DNA of 64,000 nt from Aeoliella mucimassa (GTDB lineage Bacteria; Planctomycetota; Planctomycetia; Pirellulales; Lacipirellulaceae), in the NCBI RefSeq assembly GCF_007748035.1, contig NZ_CP036278.1:1984001-2048000 (forward strand). Reading direction: 5' to 3'. Shown piece after piece: positions 45,251 through 53,069 of this stretch; position 1 is the stretch's first letter; each line of letters begins with the position of its first letter. Both the position numbers and the translations under genes were made by a program. The notes beneath the pieces were generated by a model that worked only from the letters and a program-made list of their open reading frames with translations, did not search any database and was not told the DNA's origin.

Positions 45251-48200
45251 TGCCATTTCCTGCAAAAACTAGAAGTTAACTAGGAGATCTGATCGAATAA
45301 AGCAAAAAACTGCCTGTAGAGAGCATTGCTCGTGGGGCGAATCGGCTCACTGGGGACCGAATTGCGGAGGACCGGTTGTAACGCCTGGGGGCCTGCAACT
45401 GGTGTAATTCGAACCCCCCGATGCTCAGAAAGCCGAGAATCCTGCGAATTGATTGTTGATTCGGGAGTTAGCGATCATACTGAGAGCTTCACTTCCCCGC
45501 ATCATTGATTGACACTACAGGCACTCTCAGCAATGAATCTTCGCCAGTGGTATTGGCGCTATCGCCGACCCTCCCGCCGTCCCGCCCGCCCGCAACGCAC
45601 CTTCCAAACGCTTGAACCTCGTTGGATGATGGCCGCCGATACGGTCGGCGACGAGTCGTTAATAAACGACCTGGTCGTCCACGCCCAGTCGACAGCCGGC
45701 TCGCAAATGGCGGTCGGTATGAGCGACTCGAACAGCGTGGTCGTCTACAGCGGCGCCGGCGCGACTGACAACTCAGGCGTGTTTGCCAAAGTATACGACT
45801 CCGACGGCGATGTCTTGTTGGAGGACTTTCAGGTAAACAGCACCTTCGCCGGCACGCAGTCCGAAGCATCGGTCGAGGTGTTCGAAGATGGCTCGTTTGT
45901 GATCACCTGGAGCGGACGCGGTGAAGGAGATAGCCAAGGCATCTTCATGCGGATGTTCGACGCCGATGGAGCCGCCTTGGGCGACGAAGTACTGGTGAAC
46001 ACCACGGTCGGCGGTAAGCAGTTCGATCCGGCGATCGCAATGGCCTCCGACGGGTCGTTCGCTATTGGTTGGAGTGGTCAGAGTACCGACGACTCGACCG
46101 GCGTCTACCTGCAACGGTTCGACGCCGACGGCGAGATGGTCGGCGACGAAGTGCTGGTGAACACGACAACCGAGAAGAGCCAAACCGGAATCGCTTTGGT
46201 CTTCGACAGCGAAGACGTGCTGGTCGCCAGTTGGAGCAGCATGGGCCAGGATGGCAGCGACTGGGGAGTATATGGTCAACGGTACGACACCGATGGCGAG
46301 CTACTCGGCGAGGAGTTTGCCTGGAATACAACGACGGACGACGCACAACAGAATGTATCGCTCGCTGCTGGGCCCGATGGCGAAGTGGTCGCCATCTGGC
46401 AATCGCGCGAGCAGGATGGCGATGGCTGGGGCATTGTCGCCCGGGTGCTCGCTAGCGATGGCGAGACCTTCGGCGACGAAATCCTCGTAAACGACGAAAC
46501 GGAAGGACAACAATACGACGCGAAGCTAGCGATCGCCGACGATGGCTCGTGGCTCGTCACCTGGACCACCGGAACCGACGACGGAGCCGGATGGGAGGTC
46601 GCCGCCCGGTCGTTCGACGAAGATGGCACCCCCGAAGACGATTCGTTTGCGGTGAACCAGGAAATGGCGGGAGCCAATTCCGGGCATCAGCACTACGCTT
46701 CGGTGGCTATCCAAGGCGACAAGGCGGTGATCGTGTGGTCGGGCCGTGGCACGACCGATCGCTATGGCGTTTATAAACAGGATTACGACTATGAACTAGA
46801 AGCCCAGGTCGCTCCGGATCTCGAAGAGATCGACGACGACAACGCGACGGTCGGCGTAGAATACTCGGTAACGGTCACAGCGTCCGACGAGAACTCGCGC
46901 GACACGCTGAGCTTCTATCTCGATACCGAGAACGTGCCAGAAGGAGCGACGATTGAACAAATCGATAACAACACGGCAGTGATTCGATGGACCGCCACCG
47001 AGGACCTGCTCGGCGAGACAGTCACGTTCCGCGTGCTCGTAGCCGATGATGGTGAGCCGGTGATGGTCGACTCCGAGGAATTCACGCTGACCGTCGTTGA
47101 ACAAGAGGCTCCTGTCATCGATACGATCGACGACGGCGAAGCATCGGTCGACGAAGAGTACTCGATCACGATCACCGCCACCGATATCAACACGCAAGAC
47201 ACGCTGACGTTCTCGCTCGATGGCGACAACTCACCAGCCGATGCGACGATCGAACAAACCGACAACAATACTGCGATTATCCGTTGGACTCCGAGCAGTG
47301 ATTTCGAAGGCACCTCGGTGAACTTCCGTGTGGTGGTGACCGATGACGGTGATCCCGTGATGGAAGCCTACCAGGACTTCACGGTGGAAGTATTGAATAC
47401 TCCACTGACCGTGGATCTGAACGGTGAAGAGGTCGATGGAACCGATACCTCGACAACCTATGCGGTTTCGAGTGGAGCGGTGGCCATCGTCGAAGACGTG
47501 CTGGTCATCAATGGAGCCGAAGACGACACGGTGTCGGGCGCGACCGTGGTGCTCGACGATTCGGCCGACGGTACTGTCGAAACGCTGGCTGTCGATGTGC
47601 TCGATACCGCGATTACCGCGTCCTACGATACCGCGACCGGCACACTGACGCTCACCGGCAGTGATACTGCCGAAAACTATGCTCGCGTGTTGCGAACGCT
47701 GACCTACGAGAATAGTTCGGACTCGGCGACCGGATCACGCACTGTGTCAGTGAGTGCCACCGATAGCCTTGAAACGAGCGAGCTCGCAGAGATTACGATT
47801 TCGATCGGAGCGATGGACTTGGTAAGCCTCGCCCAGGCGATCACCGACTCGGGCGCCAAGTTCTACGGAGCTGCCTGGTGTGAGAACTGCACCGAACAGA
47901 AAGAACTGTTTGAAGACGGGGCACAACTGCTTCCCTTTGTTGAGTCATCCGACGAAAATCGCGAATTGAACGACGTGGGAGAAGAGAACGAGATCGAAGA
48001 GTTCCCCACCTGGGTGTTTGCCGATGGCACTCGCCTGGTTGGTGTGCAGTCGCTACAGACACTCGCGGCCGCAGCGGGCGTGACGATTCCGGTCTCGGAT
48101 ACTCCGTACCTGGCAGAGATTGCCGACGATACGTTGCTGGTTGGTTCGCCACTGTTGATTCCACTCGACGGCTATGATCCAGCCGGCGGGGCATTGACCT

Positions 48201-48581
48201 ATACCATCACCACCGACAACGCCGACGTCACCGCCGAACTGCTAACCGGCAATCGTTCGATGGTGATCGATGTCGAAGGCTACGGTGACTTGGTCTTCCA
48301 GTTGTTCGAGAACTACACGCCGACCGCTACGCAGCGGATCATCGATCTGGCGATGGCCGATTTCTACGATGGTGTGTCGTTCCATCGCGTACTGAACAAC
48401 TTTGTGATTCAAGGTGGCGATCCCGATGGCGATGGCACCGGCGGATCGGACCTCGGCGACTTCGACGACGAGTTCAATCTTGATCTGCAGCACAATCGCA
48501 CTGGTTTGCTGTCGTTTGCGAAGAGTGCCGACGACACCAACGATTCGCAATTTTTCATCACCGAAGGGGACAGCGACAGCC

Positions 48582-49616
48582 GGCCTTGTTGAACAATTAG
48601 TCACAAACCTCCGTAAAAACTAACGTGGAATGGAACCACGTACCTTTTTTACGGAGATCGAACATGGCTACGAAAGAAAAACGAACCTACAAAGTCACGA
48701 ACTGGAAGGAGTATAACAAGTCGCTCATCGAGCGTGGAAACATCACTATTTGGTTTAGCGACGAGGCGTTGGAGAACTGGGAACATCCTAACGACCAGAC
48801 AAAAGTCGGTCGCCCTTTTGTCTTCAGCGATACGGCGATCGAGTGCTTGCTGACGATTCGCGAACTGCTGAAACTTCCCTATCGGCAGACTGAGGGATTC
48901 GGCCGCTCGCTGGTGGCGATGTTGGGCGTCGAGGCAGCGATTCCCAATTATTCTTCGCTCGCCAAGCGAGCCAGCAAGCTGAATGTTTCGCTCGATATCG
49001 CTAACAAGAGGGGCGACATCGATATCGTGGTGGATAGCACCGGCATGAAAGTGTTTGGCGAGGGCGAATGGAAGATGCGGACGCATGGCAAGTCGAAGCG
49101 GCGGACATGGCGGAAGCTGCATTTGTCGGTGAATCCTGACACCCGCGAGATTGTGGCGGAGATTTTGACCGAGAACAGTTGCCACGATGCCGATGCGGTT
49201 CCCGAAATGCTGGAGCAGGTGGAGCAGCCCGTAAAAAAGTTTCACGGCGACGGTAGTTACGACAAGTGGAAGGTTTATGAAGGGCTGGAATCCGAAGGCA
49301 TTGAGCCGGTGATTCCGCCGCAGCACAACGCCAAGATCAAACAACATGGCAACTCTGCGGAGGAGCCTTTGCCCCGGGACGAGGCAATTCGTCAGATTCG
49401 ACGCAAGGGGCGTAGGAGTTGGAAAGAGGAAGTGGGCTATCATCGTAGAAGCTTGGCGGAAACGACCATGTACCGAGTGAAACAAAGCTTTGGGAGCCAT
49501 CTCAAAAACCGAGTATTCGAAAACCAACAAACGGAAGCCCGCTTGCGCTGTAAAATCATCAATCAATTCACCCAACTCGGGCTTCCACAGTTCGAGTGGA
49601 GTTAGTCAACAAGGCC
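48582..49616 (+). mobile_element. IS5-family element, IS903 group
   Basis: A complete 1,035-bp element bounded by GGCCTTGTTGA and its inverse TCAACAAGGCC, and flanked by the 9-bp direct repeat GCGACAGCC (48573-48581 and 49617-49625). IS903-group elements make 9-bp duplications and have similar GGCTTTGTTGAA-type ends. The exact repeats and intact transposase point to a recent insertion. It lies in the coding sequence of the LEPR/cyclophilin gene. Confidence 0.95.
48664..49605 (+). CDS. IS903-group transposase (IS5 family)
   Basis: A 313-residue DDE transposase. N-terminal YKVTNWKEYNKSLIERGNIT is characteristic of the group. Catalytic residues: Asp in IVVDSTGMK, Asp in FHGDGSYDKWK and Glu in RRSLAETTMYRVKQSFG. 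No stop or frameshift is present, so the element is likely active. GGAG 8 bases before ATG 48664 supports the start. Confidence 0.95.
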   Translation: MATKEKRTYKVTNWKEYNKSLIERGNITIWFSDEALENWEHPNDQTKVGRPFVFSDTAIECLLTIRELLKLPYRQTEGFGRSLVAMLGVEAAIPNYSSLAKRASKLNVSLDIANKRGDIDIVVDSTGMKVFGEGEWKMRTHGKSKRRTWRKLHLSVNPDTREIVAEILTENSCHDADAVPEMLEQVEQPVKKFHGDGSYDKWKVYEGLESEGIEPVIPPQHNAKIKQHGNSAEEPLPRDEAIRQIRRKGRRSWKEEVGYHRRSLAETTMYRVKQSFGSHLKNRVFENQQTEARLRCKIINQFTQLGLPQFEWS

Positions 49617-50408
49617 GCGACAGCCTAAGAAACCTTGACTTCAACCATTCGATATTTGGTCTGTTGGTCGAGGGCGAATCGGCTCGAGCGGCGATGAGCG
49701 ACATTGCGGTGGAAGAGTCGGCCTCGACCGGCGAAGTGTCGAGCCCCGCGTTTGACCTCATCATGAACGATGTCGAAATCTTTACCGACAACGAGAATGC
49801 GGTCGTCCTGCTTAAGGCCGCCGAAGGAGTTAGCGGGCCCGTGGAGATCACGGTAACGGTTACTAACAGCCTCGGCAATTCCTATGAGCAGAAGTTCACA
49901 GTGGATGTTGAGGACGACACCTACGATACGCGGCCGTTCCTGGCGGATATCGATCCTGTGTCGACTACCGAGGGGACAGCCGTTTCGATTCAGCTGGAGT
50001 ACTTCGACGCGGAAGACGACCCCGTGGTGTACCAGGCGTACACGGTGGGCGATGTCGATTACACCTACGAATTGAGTGATTCCGGCCTGCTGACCGTGAC
50101 TCCCCCCGATGGATTCACCGGCGAAATGCAGATCGGCGTGCTCGTCGCCCGCGAAACGCCGCTGAACTCCAGCGACTACGACTCGCAGGTCATTACCATC
50201 GAGGTGTTGGCCGACAGCATGACCTAGTCAAAGATAACTACGCTGACACCGACCGACGCCATGGCACGGTCGGTGTCAGAATATATAGCGAAATTACTTG
50301 AGTAAACTTGCAATGCCGGATGTGGCCAGGATAATAGGTCGCACTCACTGGCTAATACGTTCAGGCAACGAAGGATTGACCACAGTGGCACGATTTGAAA
50401 ACGGCGGA

Positions 50409-53069
50409 ATGAGAAGACGCTTGCAGTATTTTATGACTCGGACCAAGAGCAAGACTGCACCCGCTCAGCGTCGCCCTCTGGGGCATGAGTCGCTTGAGCA
50501 GCGCATCGTACTCGACGCGACAGGGTTAGAAGGAAATCCTTACACTCCTGATCTCGATTTGTCGGCCATCGCCACTCAAGAGGTGGTTGCCGGCGACACG
50601 TTGACGCTCGACTTACTAACCGCCGGTGGTACCATCTCAGATCCCGATGGAGAAGGCAACGAATCGGGCGATACGTTCCGCTTCATGCTCGATCCCGACG
50701 TGCCCGACGACACGCCAACCGGGGCGACTATCACTTCCGATGGTGTGCTTACGTGGACTCCGACCGAGAGTCAGCTAGGCACGTTTGAGATCGTGATTAT
50801 CGTGGTCGACGAGGGATCGCCAGTTTTGGCGGATGCCGAGACGATTACTGTGGTGGTCAGCTCGGCGAATGCGTCGCCTGAGGTCGATCTCAATGGTTCG
50901 GAAGAGGGAACCGGCTACGCAGCCTCGTTTACTGAAGGGGATGATCCGGTCACGATTGTGGACGACGAGAACCTTACCGTATCGGATGAGGACAATACCG
51001 AACTAGTTTCGGCTTCGATCATCATCACCAATGCCTCCGATGGGGAAGACGAGGTACTTTCGGTCGATACGACAGATACCAATATCAGCGCCGAGTTTGA
51101 CGAGTCGACTAATACTCTCACCCTGACGGGTGCCGATACGCTCGAGAATTACCAAAAAGTGCTGCGAACGCTTACCTACGAGAACACCTCGGCCTCACCG
51201 ACCGAGGGCGATCGCACCATCGAAGTGCTCGTTAGAGATGGCGATGCGGTGAGCGACGCGGCTGTTTCAACAGTCACCGTAAGTGGAGAAAATACCACGC
51301 CGGAAGTCGACCTGAACGGCGAAACGGATGGCCAGAACAGCACTGCAACGTTTGTCGAAGGGGCAGGGGCCGTCTCCATTGTCGACGCGTCCATGACCGT
51401 GGTCGACGCCGACAACGACAACCTCGACATCGCGGTGATTACCATCAGCAACCTGATGGATGGCGATGCAGAGCTGTTGGCTGTTGATACCACCGGTACT
51501 AATATTACCGCCGGCTATAATAACGCGAACGGCGTTTTGACCCTGTCGGGTAGCGACACTGTGGCCAACTACCAGCAGGTGCTTCGTACGCTGACCTACA
51601 ACAATACCTCGGACGATCCTTCGACGGACCCTCGTGCCATTCTGGTGATCGTCAGCGATGGTGCGAACTACAGCACGATTCGCACCTCGACCATATCAAT
51701 TACCACTGCGAACGACGCCCCCGCGTTTGCCGATCTTGAGACTCAGACCGCTTACGTGGGCGAAGAAATGGTGGTGGTGGTCACCGCCTCGGACGTCGAC
51801 AGCAGCGACACACTGACCTTCAGTCTGGATACAAGCAACTCGCCAGCCAGTGCGACCATTACGCAAACGGGTGCGAACACCGCTGAGATTCGCTGGACTC
51901 CGGGGGCGAGCGACGAGGGTAACTCGGTTGGTTTCGCCGTGTTGGTGAGCGACGACGGCACCCCCGTGATGTCGGATAACCTCGAGTTCTCGGCCATGGT
52001 CAACGCGGCCCGCCCAACGGTCGATCTGAATGGCGATTCGGAGGGAACTGGCTTCCTGGTGTCGTTCATCGAAAACGACTTTGCGGTGCCATTGGCTGAA
52101 CCCGATGTGGCAATCACCACCGATTCAAGCACCACCATCACTTCGGCTACCGTGACGATCACCAACTTCTCCGACGGAACCGCGGAAGTGCTGGCGGCCG
52201 ACACTACGGGTACCAGCATTACCGCCAGCTACGACGACACGACGGGCATCCTGAGCCTGACTGGAGTCGACACGATCGCGAACTATCAATCGGTAATTGC
52301 GTCGCTGAGCTACCAGAACACCTCTGAGGACCCCACAGCGGGGGATCGAGCTATCGAGGTCGTCGTGAACGACGGAGTGGTCGATAGCCTGCCGGCTACG
52401 GCCACGGTTACCGTGTTCGCGATAAACGACGTGCCTGATTTGACGTTACCCGCACCGTACGACGCCCCCGAAACACCGGTGGAGGTCACCGAGTTCACCA
52501 CGGTTAGCTTCACCGCTACCGGAACCGATCTCGACCATACTGCGGATGAACTCCAATTCCTTATCGACTCTGACGACAGCGGCCTGCCTGACGGAGCGGC
52601 GATCCCCACGATCACCAACCCAGGCGGGGTGTTCAGCTGGACTCCCGATGCGACCGGCACCTATAGCTTCCGCATCCTCCTGGTCGACAGCGAAGGCGAC
52701 GTCGACCAGGAACTCGTAACGTTCACCGTGGTCGACGATACGACCGCTCCGACGGTGGTTACGGCCCCCAGCGGTGATCTGACGGGCTCTATCGGCTCGC
52801 TCACGGTGACCTTCAGCGAGGCCATGGGGTCGGCTGCCTTCGACATCGGCAACTACACGCTGGAGATCGTAGGGGGCACCAACGATGGCACTGTTGTTAG
52901 CTTTGTGGATCTGACTCAAGTGAGTGATACTTCGGTAACGCTCAATCTGGCGACCGATCTGGCGATCGAGAGCTACGAACTAACGCTCGATAACTCGCTG
53001 ATCGACGACCTGGCCGAAAACCTACTGACAGGAGATAACACCTTCGACTTTGCGGTGCTAGGCACCTAG
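50409..53069 (+). CDS. LEPR-type protein with repeated cadherin-like modules
   Basis: An 886-residue modular protein (an ATG at 50433 is also possible). The leader contains LGHESLEQRIVLDATG. The body has an N-terminal Ig-like domain, then about 130-residue modules of one type (VDLNGSEEGTGYAASFTEGD, ADTLENYQKVLRTLTYENTS; SDTVANYQQVLRTLTYNNTS; VDTIANYQSVIASLSYQNTS), one He_PIG-like module (FADLETQTAYVGEEMVVVVT) and C-terminal Ig-like domains. The repeated modules are homologous to one in the interrupted gene upstream. No catalytic domain or PEP-CTERM tail is present. It is probably a surface or matrix protein. Confidence 0.85.
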   Translation: MRRRLQYFMTRTKSKTAPAQRRPLGHESLEQRIVLDATGLEGNPYTPDLDLSAIATQEVVAGDTLTLDLLTAGGTISDPDGEGNESGDTFRFMLDPDVPDDTPTGATITSDGVLTWTPTESQLGTFEIVIIVVDEGSPVLADAETITVVVSSANASPEVDLNGSEEGTGYAASFTEGDDPVTIVDDENLTVSDEDNTELVSASIIITNASDGEDEVLSVDTTDTNISAEFDESTNTLTLTGADTLENYQKVLRTLTYENTSASPTEGDRTIEVLVRDGDAVSDAAVSTVTVSGENTTPEVDLNGETDGQNSTATFVEGAGAVSIVDASMTVVDADNDNLDIAVITISNLMDGDAELLAVDTTGTNITAGYNNANGVLTLSGSDTVANYQQVLRTLTYNNTSDDPSTDPRAILVIVSDGANYSTIRTSTISITTANDAPAFADLETQTAYVGEEMVVVVTASDVDSSDTLTFSLDTSNSPASATITQTGANTAEIRWTPGASDEGNSVGFAVLVSDDGTPVMSDNLEFSAMVNAARPTVDLNGDSEGTGFLVSFIENDFAVPLAEPDVAITTDSSTTITSATVTITNFSDGTAEVLAADTTGTSITASYDDTTGILSLTGVDTIANYQSVIASLSYQNTSEDPTAGDRAIEVVVNDGVVDSLPATATVTVFAINDVPDLTLPAPYDAPETPVEVTEFTTVSFTATGTDLDHTADELQFLIDSDDSGLPDGAAIPTITNPGGVFSWTPDATGTYSFRILLVDSEGDVDQELVTFTVVDDTTAPTVVTAPSGDLTGSIGSLTVTFSEAMGSAAFDIGNYTLEIVGGTNDGTVVSFVDLTQVSDTSVTLNLATDLAIESYELTLDNSLIDDLAENLLTGDNTFDFAVLGT

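What the first reader, a model, noticed from the sequence alone, without database searches (positions are those of the whole stretch)
45533..50227. Secreted modular gene cut by an IS903-group element, ancestor exactly recoverable
The 9-bp repeat GCGACAGCC flanks the element on both sides. Deleting the IS plus one repeat joins the frames as TEGDSDS-LRNLDFNHSIFG, which reads through a cyclophilin domain to a stop at 50227. The gene was therefore intact until recently and its ancestral protein (1,216 residues) is known to the residue. The disruption removes the end of the cyclophilin domain.
Basis: seen in the sequence. Interest (0 to 1): 0.75.

Follow-up and report, generated by a model that had tools for sequence, protein, structure and literature searches.

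The report
Jumping-gene burst broke a cyclophilin-domain gene
A marine planctomycete gene was cut by a small jumping gene just as described, and that jumping gene is one of 65 identical copies left by what looks like a very recent burst.

Summary
A 1,035-bp IS5-family element (48582-49616) sits between two copies of GCGACAGCC; without it and one repeat, the flanks form one 1,216-residue frame. Of 11 homologue loci fetched, eight reach this site and all eight run through it. The insertion cuts off about a third of a cyclophilin domain.

The event is ordinary; its context is less so. The genome matches Aeoliella mucimassa Pan181T by exact size. It holds 65 copies, with zero mismatches over 1,035 bp in every copy. 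The species description lists 3 transposable elements (PMC7717034).

Of the 65, 57 keep 9-bp duplications around a palindromic, A+T-rich target. Seven are a longer mobile form with a duplicated 69-bp right end that starts at the element's own best-scoring internal target, probably from insertion into itself. Eight lack duplications; five of these have exactly exchanged flanks, implying inversions, the widest about 736 kb. One integrase-like gene's apparent halves lie 113 kb apart.

New member of a known kind.

The parts
45533..48581 (+). 5' part of the interrupted gene (fn3-like stretch, thioredoxin-like domain, start of cyclophilin domain)
47849..48145 (+). stretch holding a thioredoxin-like domain with a CENC motif; closest solved relatives are VKORC1/thioredoxin domain proteins
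   Evidence: 3kp8_A, E 2.1e-11; Pfam below cut-off
48266..48571 (+). cyclophilin domain, profile positions 4-113 of 159; the rest lies beyond the insertion
   Evidence: (PF00160, E 1.1e-24)
48573..48581 (.). target-site duplication, left copy GCGACAGCC
48582..49616 (+). IS5-family insertion sequence (IS903-group features), 1035 bp, one of 65 identical copies
48582..48599 (+). left terminal inverted repeat (first 11 bases perfect, 14 of 18 match the right end)
48664..49605 (+). transposase, 313 aa if it starts at ATG 48664 (the mechanical ORF starts at GTG 48625)
   Evidence: NF033579, 317.4 bits, cut-off 140, with the 326-aa ORF; Y(2)R(3)E(6)K at residues 259-273
49548..49556 (.). CTGTAAAAT: best-scoring insertion target inside the element itself, and start of the 69-bp tail repeated in 7 of 65 copies
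49599..49616 (-). right terminal inverted repeat
49617..49625 (.). target-site duplication, right copy GCGACAGCC
49626..50227 (+). 3' part of the interrupted gene: end of cyclophilin domain and a bacterial Ig-like domain (Big_9)
50298..53069 (+). next gene, 923-aa repeat protein; a relative (906-aa frame, 56% identity over 896 aligned positions) follows the orthologue in G001 too

Best explanation
An IS5-family element with IS903-group features recently multiplied to 65 identical copies in this chromosome. One copy inserted, with a 9-bp duplication, into an intact gene for a large modular protein with thioredoxin-like and cyclophilin domains. The gene now encodes a product that picks up three residues from the element, stops, and lacks about the last third of the cyclophilin fold, so that domain is very probably inactive (inferred). 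Shown: boundaries, duplication, intact pre-insertion frame, uninterrupted homologues, 65 identical copies in the assembly. Strongly inferred: a palindromic A+T-rich target preference; a longer mobile isoform born by insertion of the element into its own best target; inversions by recombination between identical copies. Not shown: when the burst happened, what set it off, and any effect on the cell.
For: Duplication and joined frame. Of 11 homologue loci, the 8 that match both pieces have them contiguous; the other 3 do not reach the junction. 65 left ends and 72 right ends (65 plus the 7 extra ends of the long copies), all with 0 mismatches although 3 were allowed; 0 mismatches over the whole 1,035 bp in all 65. 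Duplications in 57 of 65, 56 exact and 1 with one mismatch. Target matrix, leave-one-out: 54 of 57 sites exceed the 95th percentile of local random sites, 49 the 99th. CTGTAAAAT inside the element ranks 1 and 2 (its two orientations) of 2,012 internal sites/orientations and is where the tail of the 7 long copies begins; all 7 have exact duplications outside the tail. Exchanged flanks among L050/L057 and L051/L053/L055. Two integrase-like half-frames, 113 kb apart and on opposite strands here, have their matches side by side at 26 of 32 places.
Against: This gene's own target is poor (4th lowest of 57). Zero mismatches in 65 copies could partly reflect assembly polishing, and exchanged flanks could be misassembly across identical repeats; nothing here looked at reads. 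Integrases are a multi-gene family (an uncut one lies at G000:C1:2259634-2260779), so the relatives show that the two halves make one kind of protein, not by themselves that they were one gene; the shared 9-bp duplication ATTGCGGGC links them. Three of the eight duplication-less copies (L032, L048, L072) have no clear partner.
Confidence: 0.93

Rival explanations
1. The 65 identical copies are old but kept identical by gene conversion, so the insertion need not be recent.
For: Flank exchange between copies points to recombination among them.
Against: No end with even 1 of 3 allowed mismatches was found on either side; 56 of 57 duplications, which lie outside any tract converted between copies, are exact too. 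In the 42 other family genomes searched only one full-length relative passed the limit, 74% identical (at most 10 candidates per genome were scored). Copies with ends diverged by more than 3 bases would have been missed by the patterns.
Confidence: 0.07
2. The gene was already decaying, or homologues naturally end here, and the insertion changed nothing.
For: The thioredoxin-like CXXC is lost in two relatives (G002, G030), so parts of this protein family are not under strict constraint.
Against: The joined frame has no internal stop in 1,216 codons. The 3' piece matches G001 and G003 at 62% and 63%, as high as the whole joined protein does (63% and 62%). All 8 informative homologues continue through the site.
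Confidence: 0.04
3. The 69-bp tail of the long copies arose by slippage or unequal recombination, not by self-insertion.
For: The intermediate (element nested in element) is not among the 65 copies.
Against: The tail starts with exactly the 9 bases expected of the inner target duplication, at the best-scoring target in the element.
Confidence: 0.12

Closest known systems
IS903 group of the IS5 family
   Same: IS5-family transposase model NF033579, 9-bp target duplication, ends beginning GGC, about 1 kb, one transposase frame. The features of IS903 are recalled, not looked up.
   Different: Transposase is at most 75% identical (best segment) to the 24 loci found in named genomes and under 60% in the 5,000 best plasmid records. 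The target consensus here is A+T-rich and palindromic; the IS903 target paper is not held, so I could not compare.
IS transposition bursts and IS-mediated rearrangements (PMC4687120, abstract seen; PMC11708052, abstract and passages seen)
   Same: Many identical copies; copies without duplications attributed to recombination between identical ISs, as PMC11708052 describes.
   Different: Here all 65 copies are identical and a second mobile isoform, apparently from self-insertion, is present; the host is a planctomycete isolate.
Cyclophilin-type peptidyl-prolyl isomerases (PF00160)
   Same: The first two thirds of the domain align well, e.g. to ppi1 (3jb9_d), residues 10-105 of 155.
   Different: Sits in a large modular protein behind a VKOR-type thioredoxin-like domain; here cut by the IS.

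Membership tests
IS5 family, IS903 group | Transposase matches an IS5-family model above its cut-off | tested here: met
   NF033579, 317.4 bits against 140
IS5 family, IS903 group | Y(2)R(3)E(6)K signature around the catalytic glutamate (motif recalled) | tested here: met
   YHRRSLAETTMYRVK, residues 259-273
IS5 family, IS903 group | 9-bp target duplication (recalled) | tested here: met
   57 of 65 copies, 56 exact; 8 without
IS5 family, IS903 group | GGC-starting terminal inverted repeats of about 18 bp (recalled) | tested here: met
   GGCCTTGTTGA perfect for 11 bases, 14 of 18
IS5 family, IS903 group | Placement by the ISfinder reference collection | not testable with these tools
   ISfinder not available
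Cyclophilin-type isomerase (interrupted gene) | PF00160 match | tested here: met
   5' piece, E 1.1e-24, profile 4-113 of 159
Cyclophilin-type isomerase (interrupted gene) | Complete domain in the present gene product | tested here: not met
   Profile positions after 113 lie beyond the insertion
Planctomycete extracellular (LEPR-XLL-like) proteins | PF07595 motif above cut-off | tested here: inconclusive
   16.3 bits against cut-off 25.5, residues 32-44

The most novel reading that the evidence does not exclude
The broken gene is one scar of a near-simultaneous burst of some 65 insertions in a cultured type strain. During it the element created a second, longer mobile isoform by inserting into its own best target, and recombination between identical copies inverted segments across about 0.74 Mb. 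The burst may be recent enough to have happened, or to be continuing, in culture.
Probability: 0.3. Interest if true: 0.6.

Novelty: new member of a known kind. Interest (0 to 1): 0.38.

Why it matters
Planctomycete type strains serve as references for gene content and gene order. If 65 insertions and several inversions are this recent, some gene losses and order breaks read from this genome are products of one burst rather than of the species. The set is also a clean natural data set (57 duplicated targets, one element sequence) for IS target choice, and an example of how an IS can gain a new end by self-insertion.

Tried and rejected
Naming the host through genome contigs gave nothing for the gene and only relatives of the element for the transposase; the name came from the exact genome size in a published table. 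Rfam on four loci gave only a tRNA, so the dispersed repeat near some insertions has no Rfam match. A solved-structure search with the 3' piece gave one weak hit (8ga7_A, E 0.0023) that I do not interpret. Paper searches on IS903 target choice and on nested IS insertion gave nothing I could use for those points; led to PMC11708052. I considered natural truncation of homologues and prior decay of the gene and rejected both. The target-matrix run stopped on an N and was repeated without windows holding N. The match between the right flank of L032 and the left duplication of L044 is left unexplained. The open-frame count used 56 of the 57 duplicated sites; L063, which holds 512 masked bases, was dropped from it. 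It measures open frames, not genes.

Full report
OBSERVATION. The element is 48582-49616 (1,035 bp). GCGACAGCC lies directly on both sides, 48573-48581 and 49617-49625. Joined without the element and one repeat, 45533-50227 gives 1,216 codons with no internal stop. At present the frame adds R-P-C from the element and ends in a stop at 48592.

WHAT THE GENE IS. Pfam places a cyclophilin domain at the end of the 5' piece, profile positions 4-113 of 159, and a bacterial Ig-like domain in the 3' piece. Just before the cyclophilin part lies a thioredoxin-like domain with CENC, closest among solved structures to VKORC1/thioredoxin domain proteins (3kp8_A, E 2.1e-11). Against ppi1 (3jb9_d) the 5' piece covers residues 10-105 of 155, so about a third of the fold is cut off. 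In the alignment the well-kept segment LDFNHSIFG follows the insertion point. Loss of isomerase activity is inferred.

EMPTY SITE. Of 11 homologue loci that came (L010-L020), 8 match both pieces, and in all 8 the two matches meet within a few residues. The joined protein aligns through the junction with all 8, at 36-63% identity. The other 3 (L014, L017, L019) match only the first part of the protein and say nothing about the junction. In G001 the gene is followed by a relative of the next window gene (56% identity over 896 aligned positions), so the gene order is kept too. None of the three other genomes of the genus showed the element (7 and 10 candidates per genome were scored).

HOST. The window is G000:C1:1984001-2048000; G000 is one contig of 6,608,792 bases. 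PMC13315336 Table 1 gives exactly this size and one closed contig for Aeoliella mucimassa Pan181T (one section and passages seen). PMC7717034 reports isolation from the hydrothermal vent area off Panarea, a generation time of 21 h, and 3 transposable elements (passages and part of one section seen). How those 3 were counted I did not see. The name rests on the size match, not on a label.

THE BURST. A pattern of the first 59 bases, allowing 3 mismatches, finds 65 places, all with 0 mismatches and none in the reversed control. The last 53 bases give 72 places, all with 0 mismatches, which is 65 plus the 7 extra ends of the long copies. All 65 were fetched and all are identical over 1,035 bp. 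With 67,275 bases and no difference, the 95% upper bound on divergence is about 4.5e-5 per base. At an assumed 1e-10 to 1e-9 mutations per base per generation (recalled range), that is fewer than about 450,000 to 45,000 generations, if copies evolve independently and the assembly is faithful. Copies are spaced as at random (CV 0.96; 95% of simulations 0.78-1.22). In the family search, 42 genomes besides this one gave one full-length relative at the E <= 1e-100 limit, 74% identical (G005). I saw no report of the burst in searches; one search was too loose to count for much, and only open-licence papers are held.

TARGETS. 57 of 65 copies have duplications, 56 exact and one with one mismatch. 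The 57 sites give a palindromic, A+T-rich consensus, roughly ATTnnnA-[ATTnnnAAn]-TnnnAAT. By leave-one-out scoring, 54 of 57 exceed the 95th percentile of 25,943 local random sites. This gene's site ranks 4th from the bottom. At 40 of 56 sites an open frame of 200 or more codons crosses the site, against 84% of 4,320 control positions. So genes are probably hit less often than chance would give, but often.

THE LONG FORM. Seven of 65 copies carry 69 extra bases, a repeat of the right end starting CTGTAAAAT, and each has an exact 9-bp duplication outside the extra bases. They therefore moved as a unit. CTGTAAAAT is the best-scoring target within the element, ranks 1 and 2 of 2,012. The simplest reading is insertion of one copy into another at this site, then movement of the inner left end with the outer right end. 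The nested intermediate is not among the 65 copies.

REARRANGEMENTS. Eight copies lack duplications. L050 and L057 have exactly exchanged flanks, and L051, L053 and L055 form a three-way exchange. Their orientations fit three inversions within 2.22-2.96 Mb (my inference from the order of flanks). A test from outside the IS: the left flank of L051 and the right flank of L053 each hold half of an integrase-like frame, 113 kb apart on opposite strands (only the right half matches a Pfam model, PF00589 at 27.0 bits, just under its cut-off of 27.1). Searched apart in 39 genomes, the left half gives 32 places; at 26 of these, in 17 genomes, a match to the right half lies next to it on the same strand, at 25 within 20 bases (recount). 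One of the 26 is an uncut relative in G000 itself. The closest is G003:C16 at 59% and 54%. L032, L048 and L072 remain unexplained.

VERDICT. The finding is confirmed and ordinary in kind. Its setting, a large and unusually clean burst with what looks like a self-made isoform, is of moderate interest.

Noticed in passing
L071:3197-4226 and, by my count, 39 other places in G000: Dispersed repeat with no ORF over 115 aa in L071, 75-90% identical in its long matches, most often the last 316 bp or so, with an inverted repeat TGGGAATCTATTTT/AAAATAGATTCCCA. Only 40 of 205 candidates were scored. A 23-base motif of it occurs 72 times with up to 3 mismatches, none in the control. 6 of 65 IS copies lie within 300 bp of that motif against 1.1 in random placement. 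No Rfam match in L071, L084, L040, L081.
   Followed up: partly
window 47849-48145 and homologues L012, L015: The thioredoxin-like domain keeps CXXC here and in five aligned homologues but has lost it in G002 and G030; the eighth (L020) lacks the domain in the stretch aligned.
   Followed up: no
L058/L059 (G000:C1:3098761-3101678): Two copies in inverted orientation 848 bases apart, each with its own exact duplication: a composite-transposon-like arrangement.
   Followed up: no
L075: The only duplication with a mismatch (ATCCCAATT against GTCCCAATT), while 67 kb of element sequence shows none.
   Followed up: no
L040, L081 and L050/L057: Three insertions at the same spot (TTTATGATTTCTGAATGATGA) of separate copies of the dispersed repeat.
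   Followed up: no
L035, L062, L068 and L052, L072: Flanks share identical stretches of about 0.9-1.2 kb, pointing to other recently multiplied elements in the same genome.
   Followed up: no
PMC7717034 Table 2: Published count of transposable elements for Pan181T is 3, against 65 copies of this one element.
   Followed up: partly
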